Part shown: positions 21,688-48,783 of the stretch, piece after piece | Layout: each line of letters begins with the position of its first letter | Position numbering within the stretch: position 1 is the stretch's first letter | DNA from: Lachnospiraceae bacterium V9D3004 | GTDB taxonomy: Bacteria > Bacillota > Clostridia > Lachnospirales > Lachnospiraceae | NCBI GenBank assembly: GCA_000621985.1 | Contig: JHWW01000002.1 | Coordinates: 186,001 to 250,000, forward strand | Reading direction: 5' to 3' | Length of the DNA stretch: 64,000 nt | Notes under the pieces: model-generated | The model's input: the letters and a program-made list of their open reading frames with translations, nothing else | The model's database searches: none | What the model was told of the DNA's origin: nothing | Made by a program: the position numbers and the translations under genes

Positions 21688-21837
21688 TATTCGCGGTTGA
21701 TTTGGGCACGTAAGCCGATGCAAGCTAGCTTGCAGATCGGCTTACGTGGATCAAATCGTACTGCGAAGCAGTGACCAAACAGCGTGAGCGTTTGCACGAA
21801 GTGCAAATGCGAATGTTGGTTGGTCAGACCGCGAATA
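21688..21837. repeat. Cloverleaf intergenic element 1 (amt-pyrG)
   Basis: Outer 10-bp stem 21688-21697 with 21828-21837. Arm 1 (21699-21757) has a 6-bp base, a perfect 13-bp stem (21707-21719 with 21736-21748) and a palindromic tip. Arm 2 is the mini-hairpin ACTGC-GAA-GCAGT (21760-21772). Arm 3 (21773-21825) closes with GACCAA/TTGGTC and carries a 10-bp inner stem (21788-21797 with 21801-21810) around a GAA loop. The outer stem matches that of the element at 48592 except for one compensated base pair. I do not recognise it as a named RNA or repeat class. Confidence 0.8.
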
Positions 21838-21849
21838 AAATATATATGG

Positions 21850-21942
21850 ACGTGCGAGTCCGGGGTATGAGTTTTCGGCCTCGCACGTGTATGTTGGTTC
21901 GGCTGACCTGTGGGGAAGAGCAGAGTGTTGTTCCTCGCAGGT
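21850..21942. repeat. Two further hairpins after cloverleaf 1, upstream of pyrG
   Basis: A 9-bp stem (21850-21858 with 21880-21888) and a weaker one (ACCTG 21906-21910 with CAGGT 21938-21942, inner GGAA/TTCC). With the cloverleaf they fill the whole 311-nt amt-pyrG gap. No clear promoter for pyrG is seen in it. Confidence 0.6.
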
Positions 21943-21992
21943 GGGGTGAATGAGCAAAGAGGGAAAAGAGAATTATGAAAGGGGGCAGTCAT

Positions 21993-23621
21993 ATGGCTGT
22001 CAAATATGTATTTGTTACCGGTGGCGTTGTTTCCGGATTGGGTAAGGGAATAACGGCATCGTCACTTGGAAGGCTGCTTAAGTCGAGAGGGTATCGTGTA
22101 ACGATGCAAAAATTTGATCCGTATATCAACATGGATCCGGGAACCATGAATCCTATTCAGCATGGCGAAGTGTTCGTGACTGATGACGGAACAGAGACGG
22201 ATCTGGATCTTGGACATTATGAGAGATTCATTGATGAAAGTCTTGATAAGAATTCTAATGTAACTACCGGAAAGATATACTGGTCGGTTCTTCAGAAGGA
22301 AAGACACGGAGATTACGGCGGAGGAACGGTTCAGGTTATTCCTCACATAACAAATGAGATCAAGAGTCGTTTTTATTCGGGTGACAGTGATGAAAACGAG
22401 ATCGCTATAATTGAAGTCGGCGGAACTGTCGGGGACATCGAGAGCCAGCCATTTCTTGAAGCGATAAGACAATTCCAGCACGATGTGGGACATAATAATG
22501 CGATCCTGATTCATGTGACATTAATACCATACATTAAGGCATCCGGAGAGCTGAAGACCAAACCCACACAGCAGAGTGTAAAAGAATTACAGGGAATGGG
22601 ATTGTGGCCTGACATAATAGTTTGCCGGACAGAATATGAGTTATCAGAGGAACTTAAGTCGAAGATAGCTCTGTTTTGTAATGTTACGGCGAAAAATGTT
22701 CTGCAGAATATGGATGTTGAATATCTGTATGAAGCACCGCTTGCATTAGAGAGAGAACACCTTGCACAGGTCGTATGCGGGGCACTTGAGATAGATTGTC
22801 CTGAGCCCGATCTTACAGACTGGAAGGACATGATACACAGACTTCGTAATCCCAAGACAGAAGTAACAATTGCGGTTGTAGGAAAATATATTCAGTTACA
22901 TGATGCATACCTCAGTGTTGTTGAAGCGCTTAAACACGGCGGTATTGCCGCAGGAGCACTGGTACATATCGATTGGATCGATTCTGAAGAGTTTGAGAAA
23001 GACGATATCTCATCAAAGCTTTCAGGTGCAGACGGAATACTTGTTCCGGGAGGTTTCGGACAAAGAGGTGTGGAAGGTAAGATCAAGGCGATAAAATACG
23101 CCAGAGAGAATAATATACCATTCTTAGGTATATGTCTTGGAATGCAGATGGCGGTTGTAGAATATGCAAGAAATGTTATAGGATTCGAAGATGCAGACAG
23201 TATAGAATTCAATCCGGACACACCGCATCCGGTTATAGCGCTTATGCCTGATCAGGAAGGCGTGACCAATATAGGAGGTACGTTAAGACTGGGAGCTTAT
23301 CCATGTATTCTGAGTGATAACACTCTTGCAAGATCATTATTCAATGAAGAAAAAATATATGAAAGACACAGACACAGATACGAATTCAATAATGATTATA
23401 TCGAAGATTTTGAGAAGACCGGAATGGTATTTTCAGGACGGTCGCCGGATGGCAGGATCATAGAGATGTTGGAATTACCGGAACATCCTTTCTTCATTGC
23501 GACGCAGGGACATCCGGAATTCAAGTCAAGACCCAACAGGGCACATCCGTTATTCAGAGGATTAATTGAAAATGCCATAAAATATGCAAAATCCAATCAG
23601 GGAGGAAATAAAAATGAGTGA
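21993..23621 (+). CDS. pyrG: CTP synthase
   Basis: 542 residues from ATG 21993, with AAAGGGGGC just upstream; an ATG at 21975 in the same frame overlaps that site and is rejected. It converts UTP to CTP using glutamine nitrogen. The N-terminal synthase domain starts [20 protein letters not shown] (phosphate-binding loop) and includes [12 protein letters not shown]. The C-terminal class I amidotransferase has its nucleophile Cys in FLGICLGMQ and the His/Glu pair in GHPEFKSRP. Its end overlaps the gltB start by 8 nt (ATGAGTGA), so the two are translationally coupled, which ties pyrimidine and glutamate synthesis in one transcript. Confidence 0.97.
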
Positions 23622-26600
23622 GAACAGGGGATTGTACAGAGAACAATTTGAACATGACAACTGCGGTATAGGAGCAGTTGTGAGCAGCAAGGGAATCAAG
23701 TCCCATCAGACAGTGGAGAATGCTCTTAAGATAGTGGAAAATCTTGAGCACAGGGCAGGAAAGGATGCAGAAGGAAAAACCGGTGACGGTGTCGGAATCT
23801 TACTTCAGATCTCGCACAAATTCTTCAAAAAAGAATGTAAAAAAATCGGTATAAACATTGGAAATGAAAGGGAATACGGAATTGCCCAACTGTTTTTTCC
23901 GCAGAATGAATTAAAGCGTAATCAGGCTAAAAAAATGTTCGAGATCATTGTTAACAAAGAGGAGCTCGAGATACTGGGATACAGAGATGTCCCGGTTGAT
24001 GCTGACGTTCTCGGACATAAGGCAAGAGAGTGTATGCCGCATATTGTCCAGGCATTTATAAAGAAACCGGACAATCTTTCTACAGGAATAGAATTTGACA
24101 GGGCATTATATGTTGCAAGAAGAGAATTCGAACAGTCAAATGACAATACTTACGTTGTATCAATGTCAAGCAGAACCATCGTCTATAAAGGAATGTTTCT
24201 TGTTGGTCAGTTGAGGACATTTTTTGCCGATCTTCAGGATAAGGCATATGAATCAGCGATCGCTATGGTACATTCAAGATTCAGTACCAATACGAATCCA
24301 AGCTGGGAGAGAGCTCATCCCAACAGATTCATTGTACATAACGGTGAGATCAATACGATCAGAGGTAATGCCGATAAGATGCTTGCCCGTGAGGAAACAA
24401 TGGAATCCGAATATCTTAAGGGACAGCTTCATAAGGTGCTTCCTGTTGTAGATACAAGAGGATCCGATTCCGCAATGCTTGATAATACGCTGGAGTTCCT
24501 CGTTATGAACGGAATGGAGCTTCCGCTTGCGGTAATGATCACGATTCCCGAGCCATGGGCCAACAACCAGACCCTTGATCAGGATGAGAGAGATTTTTAT
24601 CAGTATTATGCAACAATGATGGAACCGTGGGACGGTCCTGCTTCAATTGTATTTTCAGACGGTGATGTTGTGGGTGCTGTGCTTGATCGAAACGGTCTCA
24701 GACCTTCAAGATATTATGTCCTTAAAAACGGTGATGTAGTACTTTCATCCGAAGTTGGTGTCCTTGATATTCCCGAGGAGGATATAGTACTTAAGGAAAG
24801 ACTTCATCCGGGAAAAATGCTTCTTATAGATACTGTTAGCGGCAGTATTCTTCAGGATGAAGAAGTAAAGGCAAGATATATTACCAAACAGCCTTACGGT
24901 GAATGGCTTGACAGTAATCTTGTATTATTAAAAGAGATCAAGATACCTAATTTCAGAATTGATACATACGAAGGAGACAGGCTTAAGAAACTTCAGAAGG
25001 CTTTCGGTTATACATATGAGGAATACCGTAATTCCATTTATAATATGGCATTAAGCGGTTCCGAAGCAATAGCTGCCATGGGTGTAGATACGCCTCTTGC
25101 CGCTTTGTCAGGAAAAAATCACGGATTATTCGATTATTTCAAACAATTATTCGCACAGGTTACCAATCCTCCTATTGATGCGATCAGAGAAGAGATAGTA
25201 ACAAGTACGACCGTATATGTCGGAAGACAGGGTAATCTGATCGAAGAAAAATCAGAGAACTGCCAGGTATTAAAGATAGAGAATCCGATCCTTACGAATA
25301 CGGATATGCTTAAGATAAAGCATATGGAGCGTGAGGGCTTCAAAGTATGTGTTGTGCCGATCACCTATTATAAGAGTACGAAGCTTGAGAGAGCGATAGA
25401 CAGATTATTTGTTGCTGTTGATAAAGCTTATAAAGACGGAGCCAATATCATCGTGTTGTCGGACAGGGGAGTTGATGAAAATCACGTTCCTATCCCTTCA
25501 CTGCTTGCGGTATCCGCTGTTCATCAGCATCTTGTAAATACGAAAAAGCAGACTTCACTTGCACTCATCCTTGAATCCGGTGAGCCGAGAGAGGTACATC
25601 ATTTTGCTACCCTGTTAGGTTATGGTGCTGTTGCAGTCAATCCATATCTTGCACAGGATACAATAAGGGAACTTATTGATGAGAATCTTCTTGATAAAGA
25701 TTATTATGCTGCTGTGGACGATTACAATTATGCGATACTTCACGGTATAGTTAAGATCGCTTCAAAGATGGGTATATCAACGATCCAGTCTTATCAGGGT
25801 GCGAAGATATTCGAAGCAATCGGAATCTCTAAGAATGTTGTTGACACATATTTCAACGGAACAGTCAGCAGAGTCGGTGGAATCGAGCTTGAAGATATTG
25901 AAAAGCAGACCGATGAGAGACATTCAAGGGCATTCGATCCGTTAGGTCTTGAGATCGATCTTACTCTTGACAGTTTGGGCAAACATAAGAGAAGAAGCGG
26001 AGGCGAGGAGCACAGATACAATCCGCAGACAATACATATGCTTCAGCAGGCATGCTGGACCGGCAATTACGAATTATATAAAAAATATACAGAACTTATC
26101 AACGAAGAAAAAAGCGGTTATTTAAGAAGTATGATGGATTTTGTATATCCTGAAAAGGGAGTTCCGTTAGATGAAGTTGAGAGTGAAGATGATATAGTTA
26201 AAAGATTCAAGACCGGTGCAATGTCTTACGGATCGATCTCTGAAGAAGCTCATGAAACACTTGCTATCGCAATGAACAGACTTCATGGCAAATCAAATAC
26301 CGGTGAAGGCGGAGAAAGTGAGGAACGTCTTGATTCGGCAGGAAGCGAAGTTGACAGATGTTCTGCGATCAAGCAGGTTGCATCAGGAAGATTTGGAGTA
26401 ACAAGCAGATATCTTGTAAGCGCAAAAGAGATCCAGATAAAGATGGCGCAGGGTGCAAAGCCCGGAGAAGGAGGACATCTTCCTGCAAGAAAAGTGTATC
26501 CGTGGATCGCAAAGACCAGACATTCAACACCGGGTGTAAGTCTTATATCACCGCCGCCTCATCATGATATATATTCGATAGAGGACCTTGCGGAGCTTAT

Positions 26601-28161
26601 ATATGACCTTAAAAATGCGAATAAATATGCTGACATTTCAGTCAAACTTGTATCGGAAGCCGGTGTGGGTACTGTAGCTGCCGGTGTTGCAAAAGCCGGA
26701 GCTCAGGTTATTCTTATATCGGGTTATGACGGCGGAACAGGAGCTGCTCCGGAAAGTTCTATTCATAATGCCGGACTTCCATGGGAACTCGGACTTGCCG
26801 AGACACATCAGACACTTATACAGAACGGACTCAGAAGCAGGGTGCGCATCGAAACAGACGGTAAGCTCATGAGCGGACGTGATGTTGCGATAGCTGCGCT
26901 TCTCGGTGCCGAAGAATTCGGATTTGCAACTGCACCGCTTGTAACAATGGGATGTATTATGATGCGTGTATGTAATCTTGATACATGTCCTGTTGGTGTT
27001 GCGACCCAGAATCCGGAGCTTCGTAAAAGGTTCAAAGGAAAGCCTGAATATGTGGAGAATTTCATGAGATTTATTGCAAGAGATCTTCGTGAACATATGG
27101 CAAAACTTGGTGTAAGAACAATTAACGAAATGGTAGGAAGAACGGGAATGCTTAAGATCAGGGAAGATAATTCCCTCGTAATGGCGCCTAAGATGGACCT
27201 TAGCGAGATATTGTATCATCCCGAAAATAATTCCGATGATTCACCTGTAATTTTCGACAAATCACAGGTATATGATTTTGAACTTGAAAAAACTCTTGAT
27301 GAGAAGATTCTTATTAAAAAATTATCGGGTGCCGTTAAAGCCGGTGAGAGAATTGAGATAAATGTAAATGTAAGCAATACAGACAGAGCATTCGGAACTA
27401 TCCTTGGTGCAGAGATCACAAGGAATCATAAGAATGGTCTTGAAGAAGATACGATAAGGGTTAATTGTACGGGAGCAGGAGGACAGAGCTTCGGAGCATT
27501 TATTCCTTCAGGACTTACACTGTCGCTGTGCGGCGATACAAACGATTATTTCGGTAAAGGATTATCAGGAGGAAAACTTGCGATATTCCCGCCGAAGAAC
27601 AGAGGTTATAAAGCAGAAGATAATGTTATTGCAGGAAATGTTGCGTTGTACGGTGCAACAAGCGGTAAGGTATTCATCAACGGAATCGCAGGCGAGCGTT
27701 TTGCTGTAAGAAATTCCGGTGCTTTTGCCGTGGTTGAAGGAGTGGGAGAGCATGGATGCGAATATATGACCGGCGGAAGAGTTGTTGTACTCGGACGTAC
27801 AGGCAAAAACTTCGCTGCAGGAATGAGCGGCGGTATCGCGTATGTTCTTGATGAAGATAATCATCTGTACCGCAACCTTAACAAGGATATGATCTCAATA
27901 GAAAAATTAGAGAGCAAATATGACATAATCGAGCTTAAAAATCTTATTGAAGAACACGTTGAAGCAACGGGTTCCGAAAGAGGAAAAATGATACTTTCAG
28001 ATTGGGATTATTATGTAGAACATTTCAAAAAAATAATTCCTAACGATTATAAAAAGATCACAGCTCTTTCTTCCAAGCTCGAAGAAAAAGGAATGAGCAG
28101 GGAACAGGCACAGATGGAAGCATTTTACGAGAGTTTTTCGGATAATAATAAGGAGGACTAA
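23614..28161 (+). CDS. gltB: Glutamate synthase large subunit
   Basis: 1515 residues from ATG 23614 (RBS GGGAGG), the usual size. It makes two glutamates from glutamine and 2-oxoglutarate. The N-terminal class II amidotransferase carries its Cys in [10 protein letters not shown]; as in the family, a short propeptide is expected to be cut before it. The FMN/synthase half includes [42 protein letters not shown] and the 3Fe-4S Cys cluster in [16 protein letters not shown]. The C-terminal beta-helix (Gly-rich, [10 protein letters not shown]) follows. The start overlaps pyrG by 8 nt and gltD begins 4 nt after the stop, so all three are co-transcribed. Confidence 0.97.
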
Positions 28162-28165
28162 GGGG

Positions 28166-29644
28166 ATGGAAGAACAGAATAAAAAAATGGAATTCGGTAT
28201 GGATCCGGAGAGGTTTGAGGCGCCTCTCGAAAGAATAAAACATTTTAATGAATTTCACGCTCCGGTTTCGCTTGAAAAACAGCAGAATCAGGGTGACAGA
28301 TGTATGAACTGCGGGGTTCCTTTCTGCCAGAACGGCCAGCTTGTAGGAACAATGTTTTCGGGATGTCCGCTTAATAATCTGGTTCCCGAGACGAACAATC
28401 TTGTATGCGGAGGTAACTGGGAACAGGCATATGAAAGGCTTACAAAGACAAACCCGCTTCCCGAATTCACAAGCAGAGTATGTCCGGCATTATGCGAACA
28501 TGCCTGCACACATAATCTCTTCGAGCCTCCTGTGGAGACAAAGGAAAATGAACGTGCTATAATCGAAAATGCATATAAGAACGGATGGGTACATTCCGCA
28601 CCTCCGGCTGTAAGAACAGGAAAGAAAGTTGCTATCGTCGGAAGCGGTCCGTCAGGACTTGCAGCAGCATTAAAACTTAATAAAAGAGGACATGAAGTAA
28701 CGGTATTCGAACGTTCCGACAGGATCGGAGGACTTATAAGATACGGAATTCCGAATATGAAGCTTGACAAGAGCGTGATCGACAGAAGAATGGAGATCAT
28801 GGAAGCTGACGGGATCAAATTCCGTACAGGAGTCGATGTCGGAAAAGATATTAAAGCAGAAGATCTGAAAAAAGAATACGATGCGGTCGTATTAACATGC
28901 GGTGCATCAAATCCAAGAGATATAGGCGCACCCGGGCGTGACGCCGATGGAATATATTTTGCTGTTACATATCTTGCTGCTAATACAAAATGGCTTCTTG
29001 ACGGCAGAAAAACCGAAGAATCTCCGATAAGTGCCAAGGATAAGAATGTAATAGTTATCGGAGGCGGAGATACAGGTAATGACTGTGTAGGAACTGCTAT
29101 AAGACAGGGAGCAAAATCAGTGACACAGCTTGAGATGATGCCGATGCCTCCTGAAGAAAGAGCAGATAATAATCCATGGCCCGAATGGCCGAGAGTCCTT
29201 AAGACAGATTACGGTCAGCAGGAAGCGATCGCGGTATTCGGTCACGATCCGAGAATATACAAGACAACCGTAAAAGAATTCATAAAAGACAAAAAAGGAA
29301 AATTAAAGAAAGCAGTTATAGTCAGTCTTGAATCAAAGAAAGACGAAAAAACAGGAAGAATGCAGATGGTTCCGATTGAGGGAAGTGAGAAAGAAATACC
29401 CGCAGAACTTGTTCTTATAGCTGCAGGATTCTTAGGAAGTGAGAAATATGTTACCGACGCATTCAAAGTTGAAGTGGACGGAAGAACCAACGTATCGACA
29501 AACGACTTCGAAACATCTGTAAAAGGTGTATTCGCTGCAGGCGACATGAGAAGAGGACAGTCACTTGTAGTATGGGCAATACGTGAAGGAATAGACGTGG
29601 CACGTGCCGTCGACAAAAACCTTATGGGGTATACAAACTTGTAA
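28166..29644 (+). CDS. gltD: Glutamate synthase small subunit, NAD(P)H-dependent
   Basis: 492 residues. It feeds electrons from NAD(P)H through FAD and two 4Fe-4S clusters to GltB. The N-terminal cluster region has CMNCGVPFCQ, SGCPLNN and VCPALCEHACTHN. The FAD-binding motif is VAIVGSGPSGLAAA near residue 153 and the pyridine nucleotide motif is VIVIGGGDTGNDCVG near 295. The C-terminal GVFAAGDMRRGQSLVVWAI is the usual FAD-tail motif. RBS AAGGAGG, 4 nt after gltB. Cloverleaf element 2 starts 4 nt after its stop. Confidence 0.97.
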   Translation: MEEQNKKMEFGMDPERFEAPLERIKHFNEFHAPVSLEKQQNQGDRCMNCGVPFCQNGQLVGTMFSGCPLNNLVPETNNLVCGGNWEQAYERLTKTNPLPEFTSRVCPALCEHACTHNLFEPPVETKENERAIIENAYKNGWVHSAPPAVRTGKKVAIVGSGPSGLAAALKLNKRGHEVTVFERSDRIGGLIRYGIPNMKLDKSVIDRRMEIMEADGIKFRTGVDVGKDIKAEDLKKEYDAVVLTCGASNPRDIGAPGRDADGIYFAVTYLAANTKWLLDGRKTEESPISAKDKNVIVIGGGDTGNDCVGTAIRQGAKSVTQLEMMPMPPEERADNNPWPEWPRVLKTDYGQQEAIAVFGHDPRIYKTTVKEFIKDKKGKLKKAVIVSLESKKDEKTGRMQMVPIEGSEKEIPAELVLIAAGFLGSEKYVTDAFKVEVDGRTNVSTNDFETSVKGVFAAGDMRRGQSLVVWAIREGIDVARAVDKNLMGYTNL

Positions 29645-29647
29645 AAA

Positions 29648-29798
29648 GACCGGCACCCGGTGTGACCGTGAAGAATTCAGTCGGAAAGCTTGCTTTCCAG
29701 ATGAATTCTTCATGGTCACACCGGGCGGACAAGATGCGAAGCATCTCCGTCCGCCCACATTCGCCTGTGCTATGCACAGGCGAATGCGGGTGCCGGTC
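29648..29798. repeat. Cloverleaf intergenic element 2 (gltD-carA)
   Basis: A nearly fully paired four-way junction. Outer 12-bp perfect stem 29648-29659 with 29787-29798. Arm 1: 20-nt arms 29659-29678 and 29703-29722, perfectly paired except one G-T, with an inner 7-bp stem at 29683-29698. Arm 2: GGGCGGAC (29723-29730) with GTCCGCCC (29749-29756), tip AGATGC-GAA-GCATCT. Arm 3: perfect 13-bp stem 29758-29770 with 29774-29786. Almost no unpaired bases remain at the junction. It is GC-rich compared with the genes around it and fills the gap. Confidence 0.85.
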
Positions 29799-29831
29799 AT
29801 ACCCCACCCAATACATGAGGAATGGAGAAAC

Positions 29832-31037
29832 ATGCGAATGAAATCATATCTTATATTGGAAAACGGAATGATATTTAAAGGAGAACATTACGGCTCAGAC
29901 AAGGAGGTTGTCAGTGAGCTTGTATTTAATACTTCCATGACCGGATATCTGGAAGTATTAACCGACCCGTCATATGCGGGTCAGGCAGTATGTATGACTT
30001 ATCCTCTTATCGGTAATTACGGAATATGTTATGAGGATGAAGAATCCGTTAAGCCTGCGCTTGACGGATTTATTGCAAGGGAGATATCAAAAACCGCAAG
30101 TAATTTCAGAAGTGAAGGACTTCTTACCGATTATCTGTTGCAACATGATATACCTGCAATATGCGGTATTGATACGAGAATGCTGACCCGTATATTAAGG
30201 GACAGCGGTACAATGAATTGTATGATGACCACCGATGACAGTGTCTTTAAGATTGTTGAAGATCCCGACCAAAATATAATAAAAGATGAATGGGATCATC
30301 TGTCTCCCGACAATGTTATCATTGATGATAATGTCATGAAAAAAATAAAAGAATACACAACAGGCAATGTAGTAGACAGGGTTACGTGCGATCATGTTAT
30401 CACATATAATCCTGTCCTTTCCTCCTCTGAAGGAGATATAAAAGAAGATCAAAAAAAATGCGCAAAAAAAATTGCATTGATGGATTTTGGAAGCAAAAAA
30501 AATATTATAAGATCGTTACTTTCATACTGTTGTGAAGTAATGGTTTATCCGGCGCGTACAAAAGCAGAAGATATATTAAAAGAAAATCCCGATGGGATCA
30601 TGCTTTCAAACGGCCCCGGAGATCCCAAAGCGTGCGGAAGTATTATTGACGAAATAAAAAAAATATATGATTCCGATATACCTGTATTTGCGATATGCCT
30701 TGGTCATCAGCTGATGGCTCTTGCAACCGGCGCAACCACAAAGAAAATGAAGTACGGACATCGTGGAGGCAATCATCCGGTCAAGGATTTGCGTACGGGA
30801 AGAGTATATATTTCTTCACAGAATCATGGGTATATGGTTGATATGGATTCGCTGGATGAAAAAATAGCCGTGCCTGCATTTATAAATGTAAATGACAATA
30901 CAAATGAAGGACTCGAATATACAGGCAAAAAAATATTTACCGTACAGTTTCATCCGGAAGCATGCCCCGGACCCCATGACTCGGAATTTTTGTTCAAAAG
31001 ATTTCTGGAAATGATGGAGGAAGATAAAAATGCCTAA
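29832..31037 (+). CDS. carA: Carbamoyl-phosphate synthase small (glutaminase) subunit
   Basis: 401 residues from ATG 29832 with GGAATGGAGAA upstream; the frame stays open further upstream through the cloverleaf, but that is not coding. It releases ammonia from glutamine for carbamoyl phosphate. N-terminal SYLILENGMIFKGEHYGS and FNTSMTGYLEVLTDPSYAGQ are family marks. The C-terminal class I amidotransferase has the Cys in FAICLGHQLMALATG and the His/Glu pair in VQFHPEACPGP. A loop around residues 150-220 is longer and more charged than usual. Its end overlaps carB by 8 nt. Confidence 0.96.
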   Translation: MRMKSYLILENGMIFKGEHYGSDKEVVSELVFNTSMTGYLEVLTDPSYAGQAVCMTYPLIGNYGICYEDEESVKPALDGFIAREISKTASNFRSEGLLTDYLLQHDIPAICGIDTRMLTRILRDSGTMNCMMTTDDSVFKIVEDPDQNIIKDEWDHLSPDNVIIDDNVMKKIKEYTTGNVVDRVTCDHVITYNPVLSSSEGDIKEDQKKCAKKIALMDFGSKKNIIRSLLSYCCEVMVYPARTKAEDILKENPDGIMLSNGPGDPKACGSIIDEIKKIYDSDIPVFAICLGHQLMALATGATTKKMKYGHRGGNHPVKDLRTGRVYISSQNHGYMVDMDSLDEKIAVPAFINVNDNTNEGLEYTGKKIFTVQFHPEACPGPHDSEFLFKRFLEMMEEDKNA

Positions 31038-36681: not shown

Positions 36682-36689
36682 AAAACTTA

Positions 36690-39964: not shown

Positions 39965-39993
39965 TTGACACATGAGTGAAATAAAATTATACT
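39965..39993 (+). promoter_or_regulatory. Promoter of the secreted esterase
   Basis: TTGACA (39965-39970), a 17-nt spacer and TATACT (39988-39993), close to consensus. Start near 40000, 50 nt before the ATG. Confidence 0.75.
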
Positions 39994-40051
39994 ATTTACT
40001 GTATGCACTTACTGGGGTAAGTGTTAATTTAAGAGAGGAGAGTATTTTATT

Positions 40052-42094: not shown

Positions 42095-42206
42095 AAAAAA
42101 TTGTTCAGTACCCCACAGTAGAATATGGAATAATATTGGAAAACATTATTTCAGATAGAACTAACTGCAAATCAAGGGGCAAAATAGTTACAATCATAAT
42201 AAGTAT

Positions 42207-42255
42207 GGGGGTGCAAACAGGCATGTTATACGCCTGCAGCAGCCCCCTTGTTATA
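42207..42255 (+). terminator. GC-rich hairpin upstream of fliB
   Basis: GGGGG (42207-42211) pairs with CCCCC (42243-42247), with inner GC/GC and CAGGC/GCCTG. A T-rich run follows, so a terminator of the esterase transcript or a leader attenuator is likely. The 318-nt gap also holds TGTTCAGTACCCCA (42102-42115) and the small repeat at 42301-42320. No clear promoter was found. Confidence 0.6.
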
Positions 42256-42412
42256 TTTTTTGAAAGTTGCAAAGAGAAGCCTTTTGCATTCTATGTAAAA
42301 AATTGCTATGCATTTACTATAAAAAAAACGATCCGTTACGGATTCATTATTAATATTTCGAAGATGACCACGGGGGATATAACTCACATAATTAATTAGG
42401 GAGAAAAGGATC

Positions 42413-43579
42413 ATGATTCACGAATATCCGGCATATTATACCGAATTCCGGTGTATAGGCGGCAAATGCAAAGACAGTTGCTGTATATCATGGGAACTTG
42501 ATATTGATGATGAGACGTATGAATATTATAAAAGCGTTCAGGGAGAATTCGGCGACAGACTGAGAAGATCGATGAACAATGATGACGGGAATACATTTGT
42601 GCTTTGCGATGACGGCAGGTGCCCGTTTTTGAATAAAGAGAATCTCTGTGACATATATACCGAACTCGGAGAAGCGAGTCTCTGCAATGTGTGTACGGAA
42701 TTCCCGCGAAGTCATGAGACAATAGGTGATTATACCCGGTCGGATGTCGGATTGTCTTGTCCGGAGGCTGCAAGACTTATAATAACGGGTGATATTAATT
42801 ACGTTACCCATATTGATAAGTATGACAGCGGAGAGAGGCTCAACAGGAGTGATAAGAAAAGGCTTAAGACAATTCTTGCCATAAAAGACGGGCTTATAGA
42901 TTATATAGAGAGTGATATGTATGATGAAGCAGGCATCCCACCGGCAGGAAAAGCTGATAGCACAAAAGAAGGAACAGACAATAGCTCATGGAAAACGAAA
43001 GCTAACACCATGGTAAAATATGTTGAAAAATGGCAACTGCAATGGAATGACGAAGATTATAAGAAAATAGATGCAAAGATTGATGCAAAGATTGATGCAA
43101 AGATTGATTCAAAGCGAGGAAATAATAGTGGACTGAAAGAAGAACCCGAAGAGAAGATATCAACACACGAAAAAAGGCTTGATATGCTTGATATTATAGA
43201 AAAACTTGAACTGCTTGATGATACACTTGCTTCATGGGCAAAAAAGTATAAGGAATTATATGATGAAACTTCCTGGAGTGAATTTGTCAGAGAAAGAGGC
43301 TCCTTATATGACGTTTGGATGGAAAAGATCATGGCTTATTATATATTCAGATATATGATAAGAGCATATTATGATAATAATATTCAGACAAAGATCGATA
43401 TGGCTGTATATTCATGCTCGGTGATAGAGTGCGTGGATTATGTCAGATGGCTTGAAAACGGGCGTTGTTTTCAAGTGGAAGACATGATTGATATCGCCCG
43501 TAAATATGCCAAAGAGATAGAACATTCAGAAGAAAATCTTGAATATATTGAGGAAGAATTCCTGTTTGCGGGGGTATAA
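42413..43579 (+). CDS. fliB: FliB-like flagellin lysine N-methylase family protein
   Basis: 388 residues. The N-terminal half carries the family's cysteine pattern: YTEFRCIGGKCKDSCCISWE near residue 10, then FVLCDDGRCPFLNKENLCDIY near 63, and SLCNVCTEFPR near 88. This pattern suggests an iron-sulfur centre. In Salmonella FliB methylates flagellin lysines; in Lachnospiraceae relatives are common and their substrate is not established. No flagellar gene lies in the window. A run of IDAK units near residues 220-234 comes from a 12-nt tandem repeat. RBS AGGGAGAAAAGG. Confidence 0.85.
   Translation: MIHEYPAYYTEFRCIGGKCKDSCCISWELDIDDETYEYYKSVQGEFGDRLRRSMNNDDGNTFVLCDDGRCPFLNKENLCDIYTELGEASLCNVCTEFPRSHETIGDYTRSDVGLSCPEAARLIITGDINYVTHIDKYDSGERLNRSDKKRLKTILAIKDGLIDYIESDMYDEAGIPPAGKADSTKEGTDNSSWKTKANTMVKYVEKWQLQWNDEDYKKIDAKIDAKIDAKIDSKRGNNSGLKEEPEEKISTHEKRLDMLDIIEKLELLDDTLASWAKKYKELYDETSWSEFVRERGSLYDVWMEKIMAYYIFRYMIRAYYDNNIQTKIDMAVYSCSVIECVDYVRWLENGRCFQVEDMIDIARKYAKEIEHSEENLEYIEEEFLFAGV
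43067..43114 (+). repeat. 12-nt tandem repeat within fliB
   Basis: About four copies of GATGCAAAGATT, the last with one change, encode IDAK units. The unit is a multiple of three, so changes in copy number keep the frame. It falls between the Cys-rich domain and the C-terminal helices, in a poorly conserved-looking linker. Confidence 0.85.
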
Positions 43580-43603
43580 GGTTTATAACTGTTCAGCACC
43601 CCA

Positions 43604-43668
43604 GTTCCTTGTCGCTTCGCGCCAAGGAACATTTGGGCGTCCGAGACGCTTCGCGTCTTGTCCGCCCC
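43604..43668. repeat. Short relative of the cloverleaf elements (fliB-asd)
   Basis: Hairpin A: GTTCCTTG (43604-43611) with CAAGGAAC (43623-43630) and tip CGC-TTC-GCG. Hairpin B: GGGCG (43635-43639) with CGCCC (43663-43667) and a perfect inner stem AGACGC-TTC-GCGTCT (43644-43658). Read on the minus strand, hairpin B aligns closely with arm 2 of the element at 29648. No closing outer stem is seen, so it may be a remnant. The rest of the 43580-43799 gap is AT-rich without an obvious promoter. Confidence 0.75.
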
Positions 43669-43799
43669 ATGAAATCATAAAAAAATTATAAAAAACACAA
43701 ATTTATGGTTTTAATAATCTGATTTTTGGTGTAGAATGAATCGGATAATGATAAGCAGATGTACTTATTGTAATAATTTAATAGTTGGAGGATATGAAA

Positions 43800-44885
43800 A
43801 TGAGCGAGAAATTAAAAGTAGGTATTCTTGGTGGAACAGGTATGGTCGGACAGAGATTCATATCTCTGCTTGAGAATCATCCGTGGTTTGAAGTAGTATG
43901 TATTGCTGCAAGTCCGAGAAGTGCAGGAAAGACTTACGAAGAGGCTGTAGGCGGAAGATGGAAGATGACTACACCTATGCCGGAAGCTGTTAAGAATATT
44001 GTTGTAAATGATGTAAATGATATAGAGACTGTAAGCAGCAAAGTTGATTTTGTATTCAGCGCTGTTGACATGACAAAGGATGAGATAAGGGCTATTGAAG
44101 AGGCTTATGCAAAGACAGAGACACCGGTTGTATCAAATAACAGCGCGCACAGATGGACACCTGATGTACCTATGGTAGTTCCGGAACTTAACCCTGAGCA
44201 TCTTGCTGTTATAGCAGATCAGCAGAAGCGTCTCGGTACTACAAGAGGATTCATAGTAGTTAAGCCTAACTGTTCTATCCAGAGTTATACGCCGGCGCTT
44301 CATGCACTTCGTGAATTCAAACCGCTTAAGGTTGTTGCTTCAACTTATCAGGCAATATCAGGTGCAGGAAAGACATTTAAAGACTGGCCTGAGATGGAAG
44401 GCAATATTATTCCTTACATCAGCGGCGAGGAAGAAAAGAGCGAGCAGGAGCCACTTCGTATATGGGGAACCGTAAAAGACGGAGTTATTGTAAAGGCTGA
44501 ACTTCCTGTAATAACAAGCCAGTGTATAAGAGTTCCGGTTCTCAACGGACATACGGCAACAGTATTCGTTACTTTCGAGAAAAAGCCTGAAAAGGAACAG
44601 ATGATAGAGTTGTGGAATAATTTCAAAGGACTTCCTCAGGAGCTAGATCTTCCAAGTGCACCAAAGCAGTTTATCAGATATATGGAAGAAGATAACAGAC
44701 CTCAGGTTCAGCTTGATGTAGATTATGAGAACGGAATGGGAGTTACTCTCGGAAGACTTCGTGAGGATATAATATTCGATTATAAGTTTGTTGGTCTTTC
44801 ACACAATACTGTAAGAGGAGCAGCAGGCGGAGCAGTTCTTATTGCCGAACTTCTTAAGGCACAGGGAAGGATCACGGCAAAATAA
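43800..44885 (+). CDS. asd: Aspartate-semialdehyde dehydrogenase
   Basis: 361 residues from ATG 43800, 8 nt after GGAGG; in-frame starts at 43785 (TTG) and 43794 are too close to or before that site. It reduces aspartyl phosphate to aspartate semialdehyde on the way to lysine, threonine, methionine and cell-wall diaminopimelate. The NADP loop VGILGGTGMVGQRF is at the N-terminus, the catalytic Cys is in VKPNCSIQSY near 160, and the substrate His is in CIRVPVLNGHTA near 245. The pattern matches the longer archaeal/clostridial-type enzyme. A terminator follows. Confidence 0.96.
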   Translation: MSEKLKVGILGGTGMVGQRFISLLENHPWFEVVCIAASPRSAGKTYEEAVGGRWKMTTPMPEAVKNIVVNDVNDIETVSSKVDFVFSAVDMTKDEIRAIEEAYAKTETPVVSNNSAHRWTPDVPMVVPELNPEHLAVIADQQKRLGTTRGFIVVKPNCSIQSYTPALHALREFKPLKVVASTYQAISGAGKTFKDWPEMEGNIIPYISGEEEKSEQEPLRIWGTVKDGVIVKAELPVITSQCIRVPVLNGHTATVFVTFEKKPEKEQMIELWNNFKGLPQELDLPSAPKQFIRYMEEDNRPQVQLDVDYENGMGVTLGRLREDIIFDYKFVGLSHNTVRGAAGGAVLIAELLKAQGRITAK

Positions 44886-44916
44886 GCAAAAAATTGTTTC
44901 TCAAAACCTAAGTGCA

Positions 44917-44970
44917 CAAAAACCATACATTACATATTCGTAACTGATATTGTATTGTGTGGTTTTTTTT
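44917..44970 (+). terminator. Terminator after asd
   Basis: AACCATACA (44921-44929) pairs with TGTGTGGTT (one G-T pair) at 44956-44964, followed by a long T run. Confidence 0.75.
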
Positions 44971-45008
44971 GTTAAACTGTTACTGAATGCGAGAGGAGGG
45001 AACTGTTT

Positions 45009-46298
45009 GTGGAACTGTTGATCAAGAACGGACATCTTATCGATCCGGAAGCCAATCGTGACGGAATCCATGATATTCTTATTAAAGACGGGATAATTGA
45101 TATCGTTGCCGGGAAAAGTAAAAATATAGTCACCGATTCGGTTGATAAGGTAATAGATGCAAAAGGGTTATATGTAATGCCGGGTTTTGTTGACCTTCAT
45201 GTTCATTTCAGAGATCCGGGTCTTACATACAAAGAAACCGTCAAAAGCGGAAGCCATGCTGCTGCAGCAGGCGGATATACATCGGTATTCTGTATGCCCA
45301 ATACGAAGCCTGTAATAGATTCTGTTGAAAATTACGAGCTGCTCACTAATATAATAAAGTGTGATTCGCATATAAATGTATATCCGGTCGGAGCAGTTAC
45401 GAAAGGACAGCAGGGAAATGAACTTGCCGAGATAGAAGATATGGCTGATATGGGAATGAAAGCCATAAGCGAAGACGGAAAGTCTGTTATGAATTCTGCA
45501 ATATATCGCAGAGCAATGAATATTGCAAAAGAAAAGAATATTACTGTGTTTGCTCATTGTGAGGATATTAATCTTGTAGAAGGCGGAGTGATGAACGCCG
45601 GAAAGAGAGCCGATGAGCTCGGACTTCCGGGGATAAGCAATGCCGTTGAAGACATAATTACGGCAAGAGATATCCTTCTTGCAAAAGAAACCGGTGTAAA
45701 GCTTCATCTCTGCCACTGTTCCACTAAAGACAGTGTCTTCATGGTGAAAGCTGCAAAAGAAGCAGGCGTTGCCGTTACTGCAGAGGTGTGTCCGCATCAT
45801 TTTACGTTATCTGATGAAGATATACCCGGGGATGATGCCAATTATAAGATGAATCCGCCTTTAAGATCACGTGAGGATGTTGAAGCGTTGCTTAACGGAC
45901 TGAACGAAGGAATAATAGAGGTTATATCAACGGATCACGCACCGCACAGCGCCGAAGAAAAGAGCGGTTCAATGAAAAACGCCCCTTTCGGAATAGTAGG
46001 GCTTGAAACTTCATTTGCATTGTCATATTCCGAACTTGTATGCAAAGGAGTACTGTCACTTCCGGGACTTGTCAGATGCATGAGCACGAATCCGGCTAAG
46101 ATAGCAGGGATAGACAGGGGAAGTCTTGCAGAGGGTAAGATTGCTGATATAGTCATAGTTGATCTTGACAGAGAATATAAGATAGATCCTTCTTCATTCA
46201 GATCAAAGGGAAGGAATACACCTTTTGGCGGAAGAACAGTAAGAGGAAAAGTTGTAAAGACAATCGTTAACGGTTACGAAGTGTATTCGGAAGAATAA
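45009..46298 (+). CDS. pyrC: Dihydroorotase
   Basis: 429 residues with a GTG start at 45009, 8 nt after GAGGAGGGA; no ATG is better placed. It closes carbamoyl aspartate to dihydroorotate in pyrimidine synthesis. Metal ligands are in VDLHVHFRDPG near residue 56, with later His residues in FAHCED, CHCSTKD and the Asp of ISTDHAPHS near 305. The pattern is that of the class I, Bacillus-type zinc enzyme. pyrF follows after 57 nt. Confidence 0.96.
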   Translation: MELLIKNGHLIDPEANRDGIHDILIKDGIIDIVAGKSKNIVTDSVDKVIDAKGLYVMPGFVDLHVHFRDPGLTYKETVKSGSHAAAAGGYTSVFCMPNTKPVIDSVENYELLTNIIKCDSHINVYPVGAVTKGQQGNELAEIEDMADMGMKAISEDGKSVMNSAIYRRAMNIAKEKNITVFAHCEDINLVEGGVMNAGKRADELGLPGISNAVEDIITARDILLAKETGVKLHLCHCSTKDSVFMVKAAKEAGVAVTAEVCPHHFTLSDEDIPGDDANYKMNPPLRSREDVEALLNGLNEGIIEVISTDHAPHSAEEKSGSMKNAPFGIVGLETSFALSYSELVCKGVLSLPGLVRCMSTNPAKIAGIDRGSLAEGKIADIVIVDLDREYKIDPSSFRSKGRNTPFGGRTVRGKVVKTIVNGYEVYSEE

Positions 46299-46355
46299 GA
46301 TGATTAACCGGACGGTATATCATATGGATAATAACTATATAGGAGGAATATAACA

Positions 46356-47276
46356 ATGATAAATAAACTAATTGAAAACATTAAGAAAACCGAGGCACCG
46401 ATCGTAGTTGGCCTTGATCCCATGCTGGATTATGTCCCTTCACATATCCGTGAACAGTCATTTAATGACTGTGGAGAGACACTAGAAGGTGCGGCGATGG
46501 CAATATGGAGGTACAATAAAGAGATCATTGATGCAGTATATGATCTGATACCTGCTGTAAAACCTCAGATAGCAATGTATGAACAGTTTGGTCTGCCGGG
46601 CCTTGCAGTATTTAAGAATACGGTTGACTACTGCAAAGCCAAGGGCCTTGTTGTAATTGGAGATATCAAGCGAGGAGACATAGGTTCAACATCGGCTGCA
46701 TATGCGACCGGTCATATCGGAAAGACAAAAGTCGGAGATAATTACATATCAGCATTTGATGAGGATTTCATAACAGTCAATCCGTATCTTGGAACAGACG
46801 GAATCAAGCCGTTTGCAGATGTGTGTCGAACAGAACATAAAGGAATGTTCATACTTGTAAAAACATCCAATCCGTCAAGCGGTGAATTCCAGGACAGACT
46901 GATCGACGGTGTCCCTTTATATGAGCATGTTGCTGCCAAGGTTGCAGAGTGGGGCAGTGATGTCATGGGTGATGATTACAGTTATGTCGGTGCGGTTGTC
47001 GGAGCTACTTATCCGGAGATGGGCAAAGTGCTTCGTAACATCATGCCAAAGTCTTATATCCTTGTTCCCGGTTACGGTGCACAGGGCGGTAAGGGAAGTG
47101 ATCTTGGAAACTTCTTTAACAAGGATGGTCTTGGTGCGATCGTCAATTCTTCCAGAGGGATCATAGCTGCATATAAGCAGGATAAATATGCAGCTTACGG
47201 CGAGAAAGGATTTGCGGACGCTTCAAGAGCAGCAGTTCTTGATATGAAAGAAGACTTAAAACAGGCATGGATGTAA
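46356..47276 (+). CDS. pyrF: Orotidine 5'-phosphate decarboxylase (long type)
   Basis: 306 residues, the longer subfamily related to mycobacterial and clostridial enzymes rather than the ~230-residue E. coli form. It makes UMP from OMP. VVGLDPMLDYVP near residue 18 and the catalytic DIKRGDIGSTSAAY near 107 (Asp-Lys-x-x-Asp) are clear; GAVVGATYPE and LVPGYGAQGG are C-terminal phosphate-binding parts. RBS TAGGAGGAAT. pyrC-pyrF lie together, while carAB and pyrG are 10-25 kb upstream. Confidence 0.95.
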   Translation: MINKLIENIKKTEAPIVVGLDPMLDYVPSHIREQSFNDCGETLEGAAMAIWRYNKEIIDAVYDLIPAVKPQIAMYEQFGLPGLAVFKNTVDYCKAKGLVVIGDIKRGDIGSTSAAYATGHIGKTKVGDNYISAFDEDFITVNPYLGTDGIKPFADVCRTEHKGMFILVKTSNPSSGEFQDRLIDGVPLYEHVAAKVAEWGSDVMGDDYSYVGAVVGATYPEMGKVLRNIMPKSYILVPGYGAQGGKGSDLGNFFNKDGLGAIVNSSRGIIAAYKQDKYAAYGEKGFADASRAAVLDMKEDLKQAWM

Positions 47277-47313
47277 CAAATATTCACAGGACACAAAACT
47301 TTCACAAAAAAAA

Positions 47314-47340
47314 TTAGCACTCACCTCTTGACAGTGCTAA
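47314..47340 (+). promoter_or_regulatory. CIRCE operator (HrcA site) before hsp20
   Basis: TTAGCACTC (47314-47322), nine bases, then CAGTGCTAA (47332-47340), matching the CIRCE consensus except one base at the start of the second half. It overlaps the -35 box of the hsp20 promoter, so HrcA would block transcription until heat shock. Confidence 0.93.
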
Positions 47341-47356
47341 CAAAAGGTGGTATAAC
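47328..47356 (+). promoter_or_regulatory. hsp20 promoter
   Basis: TTGACA (47328-47333), a 17-nt spacer and TATAAC (47351-47356). Start near 47363, giving a leader of about 95 nt. Confidence 0.8.
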
Positions 47357-47405
47357 GTAGTCAGAACAAAGGAACAGAGAAGATTCAAAGAAGTGAATCC
47401 GAACA

Positions 47406-47447
47406 CTCCTTCCCTTGCTCAGAAAGAAAATGATTTTTGAGAAGGAG
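47406..47447 (+). promoter_or_regulatory. Hairpin hiding the hsp20 ribosome binding site (candidate RNA thermometer)
   Basis: CTCCTTC (47406-47412) pairs with GAAGGAG (47441-47447), the Shine-Dalgarno itself. Above a 6-nt bulge, TCAGAAA (47419-47425) pairs with TTTTTGA (47434-47440). The SD is thus sequestered by a weak stem, as in heat-responsive small-heat-shock-protein leaders. Confidence 0.55.
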
Positions 47448-47456
47448 GAATGACCT

Positions 47457-47906
47457 ATGTTGTTACCAAGTGTTTTTGGAGAGAATTTATTGGATGACTG
47501 GCTTGATTTTCCGAGGATGAGAGATTTTGAAGATGTTGACCGCAAGTTATACGGCAAACACGCTGCTTACGTTATGAAGACTGATGTTCATGAACATGAC
47601 GACGGATATGAACTTGACATCGATCTGCCGGGATTCAAGAAGGATGAGATCAAGGTATCTCTTGAGAACGGATATCTGTCGGTATCGGCAGCCAAGGGAC
47701 TTGACAATGATAAGAAGGATAAGAAAGGTAAGATCATCCGCAGGGAAAGATATTCCGGTTCGATGCAAAGGAGTTTCTATGTGGGAGACGTGGTTACCGA
47801 AGAAGACATCAAAGCAAAATTCGAAGACGGTGTGCTCAGACTGAGCATCCCAAAGAAAGAGGCTGAGAAGATACCGCAGAAGAAGATGATAAGTATAGAC
47901 GGATGA
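47457..47906 (+). CDS. hsp20: Small heat-shock protein, Hsp20/alpha-crystallin family
   Basis: 149 residues. A short N-terminus (LLPSVFGENLLDDWLDFP) precedes the alpha-crystallin domain (about 38-145), with VHEHDDGYELDIDLPGFKKD, the GYLSVSAAKG strand, RRERYSGSMQRSFYV and the closing GVLRLSIPK before EKIPQKK. It is an ATP-independent holdase that keeps unfolding proteins soluble. Control by CIRCE plus a possible SD-hiding hairpin is visible upstream. A strong terminator follows. Confidence 0.96.
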   Translation: MLLPSVFGENLLDDWLDFPRMRDFEDVDRKLYGKHAAYVMKTDVHEHDDGYELDIDLPGFKKDEIKVSLENGYLSVSAAKGLDNDKKDKKGKIIRRERYSGSMQRSFYVGDVVTEEDIKAKFEDGVLRLSIPKKEAEKIPQKKMISIDG

Positions 47907-47977
47907 ACATATAGTTAGTTATGCAAAGAGCACAGATATAATATAATAATGGACGTGATAGATTATAACGTGCTTTT

Positions 47978-48028
47978 AACGCCCGTTCAGGTAAGAAGAG
48001 TGATTGGAATACCTGAACGGGCGTTTTG
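47978..48028 (+). terminator. Terminator between hsp20 and the sigma factor
   Basis: A perfect 15-bp stem (47978-47992 with 48011-48025), then TTTT. A TATAAT-like box lies just upstream (about 47938-47950) with only a weak -35, so this could also attenuate a sigma-factor transcript. It shows that an ATG at 47949 in the sigma-factor frame is not a real start. Confidence 0.85.
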
Positions 48029-48071
48029 TACGTATCAGGGAGGGAAGAATCTTGAAGATAAGGAGAAACAT

Positions 48072-48620
48072 ATGTCACTTAATACATTTGAAGACAGACA
48101 ACGATTTGCAGAATTCTATCATGCGACATATGATGAGCTTTTAGAGCTGGCGTTTGGCATGTTACATAATAAACATGATGCAGAAGAAACAGTGCATGAT
48201 GTATATGCCAAACTGGCAGATGATTATAACAGTTATAAGACTAAAAGTGTCAGAAAAATGAAAAGTATTGCTGTTACTGCAACAAGAAATTCAAGTATTA
48301 ATCTTATACGTAAGAGAGAAAGACACAGAGAGATATTGATCGATATTAAGGAAAATATGCTTGGATCATATGATAACGTTCAGATGGATTTTTTAAGAAA
48401 ATGCAAAGAACAGGATATAAAAAATGCACTTGATAAACTGAAAACAGATGACAGAGATATTCTGATATTAAAATATTATCTTGAAATGAGTTATTCCGAG
48501 ATGGGAAAATTGTTATCTTTGAAAAATAAAACCGTGGAGGTAAGATTGAGGCGTGCAAAACAGAGACTGGAAGAGATATTGAGGGAAGAAAGTTACTATT
48601 CACGGTCCCCACGCTCTTAA
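48072..48620 (+). CDS. RNA polymerase sigma factor, ECF/sigma-70 type
   Basis: 182 residues from ATG 48072 with AAGGAGAAA upstream; the frame is open to 47949 but only through a terminator. Region 2 includes FYHATYDELLELAFGMLHNK and the EETVHDVYAKLAD segment, then TATRNSSINLIRKRERH. Region 4 shows DRDILILKYYLEMSYSEMGK and KTVEVRLRRAKQRLEEIL, a helix-turn-helix. No anti-sigma gene is adjacent. The last eight or so residues (YYSRSPRS) are encoded by the 5' arm of cloverleaf element 3, so the element has rewritten the C-terminus. Confidence 0.88.
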   Translation: MSLNTFEDRQRFAEFYHATYDELLELAFGMLHNKHDAEETVHDVYAKLADDYNSYKTKSVRKMKSIAVTATRNSSINLIRKRERHREILIDIKENMLGSYDNVQMDFLRKCKEQDIKNALDKLKTDDRDILILKYYLEMSYSEMGKLLSLKNKTVEVRLRRAKQRLEEILREESYYSRSPRS

Positions 48621-48783
48621 CCCATAGCCCATCTGCTTCGCATCTGACGCGGCTTCGCCGCTTATGGCTATGGGGCGTGGGGGCGGTTCCTGCTTCACAG
48701 GAACCTTGCACGTAACAGCATATAGATTCTTACGTACAAGCACGACGAATCTGTATACCGTTACGTGCACCGTGAATAGTAAC
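48592..48783. repeat. Cloverleaf intergenic element 3 (sigma factor-hybrid kinase)
   Basis: Outer perfect 15-bp stem 48592-48606 with 48769-48783. Arm 1: CCCCACGC (48607-48614) with GCGTGGGG (48675-48682), then CCCATAGCC (48621-48629) with GGCTATGGG (48666-48674), carrying two mini-hairpins at 48634-48642 and 48649-48661. Arm 2: GGTTCCTG (48685-48692) with CAGGAACC (48698-48705). Arm 3: TGCACGTAAC (48707-48716) with GTTACGTGCA (48760-48769) and an inner GATTC/GAATC stem. The largest of the family; it overlaps the last codons of the sigma factor. Confidence 0.85.

What the first reader, a model, noticed from the sequence alone, without database searches (positions are those of the whole stretch)
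21688..48783. Compensatory changes between element copies show selection for structure
The outer stems of the elements at 21688 and 48592 share TATTC-x-CGGT on the 5' side. Position x is G in one and A in the other, and the 3' sides read ACCG-C-GAATA and ACCG-T-GAATA, so the pair changes from G-C to A-T. The arm GGGCGGACAAGA at 29723 and the minus-strand copy at 43635-43667 differ at the tip, GATGC-GAA-GCATC against GACGC-GAA-GCGTC, again a compensated pair. Independent modules are shared in different combinations, so the family looks mosaic.
Basis: seen in the sequence. Interest (0 to 1): 0.9.

Follow-up and report, generated by a model that had tools for sequence, protein, structure and literature searches.

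The report
Folded mobile repeats in gut bacteria
The repeats are small mobile DNA elements whose ends look like those of a known transposon family, and whose insides keep folding into the same three-armed shape even when the letters change, which suggests the fold itself is useful.

Summary
The letters reported are there. The copies belong to a large family: at least 38 places in this 3.4-Mb genome by covariance model, and 37 of 199 other genera sampled from its family. A full copy is an outer stem enclosing three arms. The outer stem is a pair of transposon terminal inverted repeats (GTTAC/GTAAC ends). Of 63 complete copies, 27 have flanking 8-bp duplications matching at 7 or 8 bases (shuffled: 1%); none exceeds 8. 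IS66 relics carry similar ends, so these are most likely non-autonomous IS66-type elements, though PF03050 was found in only 8 of 24 carrier genomes. Pairing covaries at 69 of 75 pairs over 98 copies. In the arms G-T mismatches outnumber A-C 223:77 on one strand (p 1e-17); in the outer stem 32:23, not significant. So the arms look selected as a one-strand fold, while outer-stem changes need only mean that the two ends match. Module shuffling is supported but one-sided. The nearest catalogued relative is Rfam Clostridiales-1, whose cut-off the tested copies do not reach. Whether the fold works as RNA or single-stranded DNA, and what it does, is unresolved.

The parts
21683..21838 (+). element copy (subfamily I ends), read in the order outer stem - arm C - arm B - arm A - outer stem; right end decayed (GAATAAAAT in place of GAATAGTAAC)
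   Evidence: R1 match 21683-21841 +, 40.5 bits, E 2.9e-10; sequence
29648..29798 (+). second-subfamily copy just after ORF 28166-29644: outer stem GACCGGCACCCG..CGGGTGCCGGTC with three arms; arm B at 29723-29756
   Evidence: sequence; similar copies elsewhere in the genome (query 9645-9797) with the same three-arm fold in the fuller ones; not matched by R1
43587..43683 (-). truncated second-subfamily copy: end AACTGTTCAGCACCCC, arm A, arm B (43635-43667) and only the start of arm C
   Evidence: sequence; matches at query 1286-1384; fuller copies such as L220, L222, L225
48592..48783 (-). complete subfamily I copy, outer stem plus arms C, B, A on the minus strand; its + strand start overlaps the last codons of ORF 47949-48620; no target duplication visible (2 of 8)
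   Evidence: 195.1 bits on the minus strand, 56.7 on the plus (a model row)

Best explanation
The elements are non-autonomous transposons (MITEs) of IS66 type. Shown: paired ends beginning GTTAC or GTAAC, 8-bp target duplications at many copies, no room for a transposase gene inside, amplification in some genomes and rarity or absence in congeners, arm combinations that differ between copies, and an interior whose three arms keep pairing on one strand while the letters change. Inferred: an IS66-type transposase supplied in trans acts on the two ends, which form the outer stem, and moves the element. Inferred with less confidence: when the C-B-A strand is single (as a read-through transcript, or as DNA during replication or transfer) it folds into a junction of three arms with GNA-capped hairpins and a conserved GU/UAA internal loop beneath the tip of arm C; the fold is recognised by a host or transposon factor and helps the element persist or spread. 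I put RNA and single-stranded DNA at about 0.4 each for the working form, and 0.2 for neither.
For: TSDs: 27 of 63 complete sites match at 7-8 of 8 adjacent bases, against 1.0% in shuffled pairings; 14 exact at 8, none at 9-12. A second set of 20: 19 evaluable, 9 exact and 2 at 7 of 8. Ends: IS66 (PF03050) relics carry matching ends, L247 in the own genome 12 of 12 (14 of 18), L263 17 of 18, L259 16 of 18, L260 14 of 18; an intact IS66-like element, L293, 11 of 12 (15 of 18); four ordinary IS66s as controls match 7-8 of 12 and 9-12 of 18. Ordinary IS66s here: of four with paired ends, two have exact 8-bp TSDs, one 5 of 8, one runs to the contig end. Copy number: 38 places in the own genome, 0-5 matches in nine congeners. 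Covariation: 69 of 75 pairs above all 150 tree nulls; 92 rows outside the model 0.92 paired, slid 0.34-0.43. Strand: arms G-T 223 to A-C 77 in 98 copies, 171 to 73 counting each context once (p 3e-10); outer stem 32 to 23; by folding without G-U, arms 74 to 25, outer 6 to 7. GNA triloops in 53 of 129 distinct hairpins of arms B and A against 1 of 352 terminator-like hairpins.
Against: PF03050 was found in only 8 of 24 element-bearing genomes searched, and the own genome has only a 51-residue fragment, so the mobiliser is often missing now. Typical IS66 ends begin GTAAGCG (passage in PMC11946415), not GTTAC. The best GTTAC-ended IS66, L293, has only 4 of 8 at its own flanks, and its ORF scores 137.1 against NCBIfam's IS66 cut-off of 180, though above Pfam's. 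One GTTACTATTCACAG pair flanks an IS4-type gene instead. Only 2 of the 13 own-genome sites among the 63 have a TSD at 7-8 of 8. Among six second-subfamily copies with readable ends none reached 7 of 8 (best 6). G-T over A-C is only about 2.3:1 over distinct contexts, low for a strongly constrained RNA (recalled expectation), and an early count gave 25:12 in the outer stem too. Orientation to genes is unbiased. The alignments were made with the structural model, which leans towards that structure.
Confidence: 0.75

Rival explanations
1. The interior is a structured noncoding RNA of the Clostridiales-1 kind that was captured by transposon ends and works as RNA in transcripts through the element.
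For: Same overall plan and, in three of the four above-cut-off Clostridiales-1 copies of this genome, a GTGCnnGCAC arm C tip like the elements'; weak matches in both directions (RF01699 on L149 at 36.4 and L124 at 38.4 bits; R1 on L029 at 19.9, L031 at 22.6, L032 at 14.1 and L033 at 28.2 bits); one-strand pairing; arm C capped by CNNG loops, of which CUUG is an RNA-stable one (recalled).
Against: None of the tested transposon copies reaches Rfam's cut-off of 48: L021 gave 30.4 bits but did not reappear, L024 22 bits; L231, L218, L151 and L079 gave no RF01699 match. No orientation preference relative to neighbouring genes. GNA triloops are a DNA mini-hairpin signature (PMC4686876 passage). No expression data.
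Confidence: 0.4
2. The interior works as single-stranded DNA: the C-B-A strand folds when exposed and is recognised by a replication, recombination or transposition protein.
For: GNA triloops with all four N, 86 of 113 closed by C-G and none by G-C, 113 on the C-B-A strand against 2 on the other; such hairpins with GNA or GNNA loops are extraordinarily stable in DNA (passage); unbiased orientation to genes; lower energy on that strand with DNA parameters in 94 of 98.
Against: A DDE transposon with 8-bp duplications does not need single strands (recalled). GNRA loops are also rare in the terminator control (8 of 352), so the control shows that GNA is special here, not that the molecule is DNA. 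The energy bias is the same with RNA parameters (93 of 98).
Confidence: 0.4
3. The arms stay paired because imperfect palindromes are corrected by template switching during replication, with no selection.
For: Long perfect stems, tandem copies (L095) and arms that differ wholly between copies are what such a process could leave.
Against: Conserved unpaired parts would tend to be erased, yet the GU/UAA loop is kept in 53 of 63 and RTGAG..CGAAT in 29 of 63 (2 of 63 on the other strand); the G-T over A-C bias is not predicted.
Confidence: 0.12
4. The GTTAC-ended copies are moved by an IS4-type transposase rather than IS66.
For: L295:574-2321, 1748 bp, has ends GTTACTATTCACAGTCC matching element ends at 17 of 18, flanks matching at 7 of 8, and one 461-aa ORF scoring 167.9 bits for IS4 family (cut-off 115).
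Against: Its inner CCAATGTCATTTAG resembles the CCAATGTCATTAAG of Lactococcus IS1675, whose outer flanks differ, so the IS4-type gene may merely have inserted between two element ends; only one such case seen.
Confidence: 0.2

Closest known systems
Rfam RF01699 Clostridiales-1 RNA
   Same: Outer stem with three arms in the same order, GTGCnnGCAC-type arm C tip, GNA-capped hairpins in some copies; four above-cut-off copies in this very genome
   Different: Outer stems vary between copies and lack GTTAC ends; I saw no flanking duplication by eye (not tested by script). Transposon copies score 22-38 bits or not at all against a cut-off of 48. The 2010 paper's table lists it as RNA 'probably', cis-regulatory 'probably not' (passage, PMC2864571)
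IS66-family insertion sequences
   Same: Ends starting GTAA, 8-bp target duplications, end sequences shared with relics
   Different: No gene; R1 finds no arms in the 12 IS66-bearing stretches examined; ends GTTAC/GTAAC rather than GTAAGCG
MITEs with foldable transcripts, e.g. QMITE2 of Coxiella
   Same: Short, inverted ends, 7-9-bp direct repeats, stable predicted fold (passages in PMC10969869)
   Different: The passages seen mention no covariation; here the interior is a conserved three-arm fold of one strand
Mobile/repeat structured candidates (MRSC) of the 50-genome RNA survey
   Same: Multi-copy structured motifs with inconsistent orientation to genes; the authors allow a DNA form for their example (passages in PMC11109978)
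   Different: The one example read has UYCCGG repeats, not these ends or arms

Membership tests
IS66-type MITE | 8-bp target duplications next to the ends | tested here: met
   27 of 63 at 7-8 of 8; 11 of 19; the window copy at 48592 itself shows none (2 of 8), and six second-subfamily copies reach at most 6
IS66-type MITE | Terminal inverted repeats shared with an IS66 element | tested here: met
   relics L247, L263, L259, less closely L260, and L293; controls 7-8 of 12
IS66-type MITE | Ends starting GTAAGCG | tested here: not met
   GTAAC or GTTAC; the relics with matching ends also deviate; the feature is from a passage
IS66-type MITE | No transposase gene inside | tested here: met
   the 63 complete elements are 148-243 bp
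IS66-type MITE | Moved in trans by IS66 proteins | not testable with these tools
   needs a transposition assay; PF03050 in 8 of 24 element-bearing genomes
Rfam Clostridiales-1 | Score of 48 bits or more to RF01699 | tested here: not met
   30.4 (L021, one of three searches), 22 (L024), 36.4 (L149), 38.4 (L124); none for L001, L002, L006 or L231, L218, L151, L079
Rfam Clostridiales-1 | Outer stem, three arms, arm C tip CGUGCUUGCACG or close | tested here: met
   by folding and inspection of selected copies
REP/RAYT or IS200/IS605-derived repeats | Y1 transposase gene beside the repeats | tested here: inconclusive
   four PF01797 places, all at contig ends; one (C16) has an element about 0.8 kb away (L027/L054); the other three were not searched with R1
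REP/RAYT or IS200/IS605-derived repeats | No target duplication | tested here: not met
   8-bp duplications present; the feature is recalled

The most novel reading that the evidence does not exclude
A superfamily of bacterial DNA transposons whose interior is under selection as a one-strand, GNA-capped three-arm fold, probably single-stranded DNA, and of which the catalogued RNA family Clostridiales-1 is a settled or separately moving branch, so that a family listed as a small RNA is really part of a mobile structured-DNA lineage.
Probability: 0.3. Interest if true: 0.8.

Novelty: new variant of a known kind. Interest (0 to 1): 0.62.

Why it matters
MITEs are usually treated as leftovers with random interiors (recalled). 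Here the ends behave as transposon ends and the interior as a conserved one-strand fold, with different results in the same strand test. That gives a concrete system for asking whether selfish DNA recruits structured nucleic acid, and it offers a context for an Rfam family of unknown function found in gut Clostridia.

Tried and rejected
Y1/REP origin: the four own-genome PF01797 hits lie at contig ends; the four stretches printed look like copies of one IS200-type element with its own hairpin (family recalled). Against a clean rejection, one lies about 0.8 kb from an element. Rfam at the gathering cut-off finds nothing in the window. A near-stop-codon, sense-only placement suggested by 25 own-genome loci vanished over 79 sites. 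Empty sites in congeners could not be read: matches are mostly 66-83% identical and gene order differs. The 48592 copy has no DNA match in the plasmid or phage collections (no other copy was tried). IMG/VR searched with the IS4-type protein gave no relative. Of 11 IS66 stretches fetched, 5 showed no paired ends by my test and one pair (L285) looked spurious.

Known faults: the A4 half is invalid because I mistyped its structure string (467 characters for 472 columns). The pair labels used a wrong index; counts were re-read by eye. Nine second-strand rows were dropped. The loci behind one search come from searches seeded with arm C, the end motif or R1, and only sites with similar ends entered, so copies without arm C are under-represented. 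One search's null holds true element ends. Copies are related, so p-values that count them singly are too small; counts by distinct context are the safer ones. Genome searches with R1 scored 150 or 13 candidates per genome, so copy numbers are lower bounds; the 21683 copy is itself missing. One search's table was cut off.

Papers: PMC2864571, PMC10969869, PMC4686876, PMC11946415, PMC3189936 and PMC11109978 were seen only as passages; all others only as search listings. Searches for these end sequences, for IS66 with MITE, and for Clostridiales-1 showed in their listings no paper describing these elements (open-licence PMC only).

Full report
1. The observation. The quoted letters are in the window. 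The elements at 21683 and 48592 share ends GTTACTATTC and differ by a compensated G-C/A-T pair; over 98 family copies that pair is A-T 81, G-C 7, C-G 4 and the rest mismatched or gapped. The arm at 29723 and the minus-strand copy at 43635-43667 differ by a compensated T-A/C-G pair; over the 18 readable copies of that arm (of 20 examined) it is C-G 14, T-A 2, T-G 1, C-A 1 (read by eye).

2. Anatomy and spread. Folding copies gathered from the own and other genomes showed one plan in the full copies: an outer stem of about 15 bp, then arm C (long, mostly capped by a CNNG loop with an asymmetric internal loop beneath), arm B (short hairpin) and arm A (often with two sub-hairpins). I call the strand read in that order C-B-A. 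A covariance model R1 from six own-genome copies finds 42 matches at E <= 1e-3 in the own genome; four are second-strand matches at places already counted, leaving 38 places, several of them fragments, the six model copies included and the 21683 copy not (it appears when the window is searched alone). Nine congeners have 0-5 matches, five of them none. In 200 genomes of the family, one per genus, 38 have a match at E <= 1e-6, the own genome being one, so 37 of 199 others. A second subfamily, with ends like AACTGTTCAGCACCCC, has the same plan in its fuller copies (18 stretches fetched); the window copies at 29648 and 43587 belong there. R1 links it to the first only weakly (L231, 27 bits; of 14 such stretches no other convincing match; L232's 14.4 bits falls on a different, first-subfamily fragment), so that link rests on architecture.

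3. They are transposons. Ends are GTTAC or GTAAC. In 63 complete copies, 14 have exact 8-bp direct repeats immediately outside and 13 more match at 7 of 8; shuffled pairings give 1.0%; no exact repeat is longer than 8. In a second set of 20, 19 were evaluable: 9 exact and 2 at 7 of 8. The 48592 copy has none (2 of 8) and is presumably old; only 2 of 13 own-genome sites and none of six second-subfamily copies reach 7. IS66 is described with GTAAGCG ends and 8-bp repeats (PMC11946415, passage), and of four IS66s with paired ends fetched here two show exact ones, one 5 of 8, one unreadable. IS66 relics carry the elements' ends about 130-220 bp beyond the match to the transposase's last part: L247 (own genome), L263, L259 and, less closely, L260; the intact IS66-like L293 begins GTTACTTTTCACGG, with flanks at 4 of 8. 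Ordinary IS66 controls match only 7-8 of 12. Against this, 16 of 24 element-bearing genomes gave no PF03050 match, and one GTTACTATTCACAG pair encloses an IS4-type gene related to Lactococcus IS1675. I read the latter as an insertion between two ends, but cannot exclude that it is a mobiliser.

4. Covariation. On 98 best-strand copies (107 rows, 9 second-strand rows dropped), 69 of 75 pairs have a G statistic above all 150 tree-based nulls: outer 14 of 15, arms 55 of 60. In the 92 copies not used for the model, 92% of cells pair against 34-43% when partners are slid by 1-3, and 75 of 76 pairs show Watson-Crick types differing on both sides against 45-51. The alignment leans towards the model, and recombination makes the tree null imperfect.

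5. Mosaicism. Among 19 full own-genome copies, identity in arm C and in arm A is nearly uncorrelated (r 0.14 over 171 comparisons), and 8 comparisons have arm A at 0.85 or more with arm C at 0.55 or less; none has the reverse (arm C 0.80 or more with arm A 0.62 or less). Single-linkage groups cross in two places: one arm C group occurs with two arm A groups (L042, L044), another likewise (L038 group, L053). So shuffling is supported, but faster change of arm C could explain part of it.

6. One strand only. On the 98 copies the arms hold G-T 223 and A-C 77 (p 1e-17), or 171 and 73 counting each context once (p 3e-10); the outer stem holds 32 and 23 (p 0.28), or 28 and 22. Folding without G-U pairs and counting single mismatches gives 74 and 25 in the arms and 6 and 7 outside (51 and 21 distinct contexts, p 5e-4). 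An earlier count on 29 own copies, fragments included, gave 83 and 20 in the arms but also 25 and 12 in the outer stem, so a weak bias there is not excluded. The C-B-A strand has the lower energy in 93 of 98 with RNA and 94 of 98 with DNA parameters. The ends thus look like paired binding sites and the arms like a single-strand fold.

7. DNA or RNA. Hairpins of arms B and A are capped by GNA triloops in 53 of 129 distinct cases against 1 of 352 terminator-like hairpins in flanking DNA; over all copies GAA 90, GTA 13, GCA 8, GGA 2, closed by C-G in 86 of 113 and never by G-C. GNA and GNNA loops make extraordinarily stable DNA mini-hairpins (PMC4686876, passage). But GNRA loops are also rare in that control (8 of 352), and arm C's cap suits RNA as well (recalled). 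Orientation to neighbouring genes is unbiased. I leave this open.

8. Known relatives. Clostridiales-1 (RF01699) shares the plan; four copies above cut-off lie in this genome. The transposon copies stay below it: L021 30.4 bits but absent, L024 22, L149 36.4, L124 38.4, and no match for seven others tested. R1 matches the four above-cut-off copies at 19.9 (L029), 22.6 (L031) and 14.1 bits (L032) and not at all (L030). The RTGAG..CGAAT motif is in 29 of 63 elements but in only one of those four copies. I take them as probable relatives, not members. R1 finds no arms in the 12 IS66-bearing stretches examined.

9. Verdict. A real, amplified family of IS66-type non-autonomous transposons with a conserved one-strand interior fold.

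Noticed in passing
L218:12-261 (G000:C7, about 22211-22460): A T-box leader (106 bits, RF00230) lies just upstream of a second-subfamily copy in the own genome.
   Followed up: no
G000:C3:125062, C2:170075, C15:57638, C4:124568 (L029-L032): Four above-cut-off Clostridiales-1 RNAs, with outer stems that differ between copies; two start within a base of a stop codon by my ORF calls.
   Followed up: partly
L295:574-2321 (G076:C9); L298:3587-3614 (G076:C3): An IS4-type gene related to IS1675 sits between two element ends with no arms left; a minimal end-to-end palindrome of 28 bp also occurs in that genome.
   Followed up: partly
L187:7690-7881: A copy lies on a viral contig whose ORF 2913-4571 looks like a terminase (by eye), so prophages may carry the elements. 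Its score equals that of L096, so it may be the same host record.
   Followed up: no
L082, L100, L144, L150 (Pseudalkalibacillus caeni): Arm C motif in 10 of the 110 stretches, from a distant Bacillales genome, but in the copies folded it lies inside a different outer architecture.
   Followed up: no
window 21850-21960: Two further predicted hairpins between the 21683 element and the next ORF (21975-23621, thought from recall to be CTP synthase), possibly a leader.
   Followed up: no
L095:765-1159: Two nearly identical copies head to tail, seven bases apart by the model's ends.
   Followed up: no
G000 contig ends C2, C8, C16, C17: Repeated IS200-type Y1 transposase gene at assembly breaks; the C16 one lies about 0.8 kb from an element.
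   Followed up: partly
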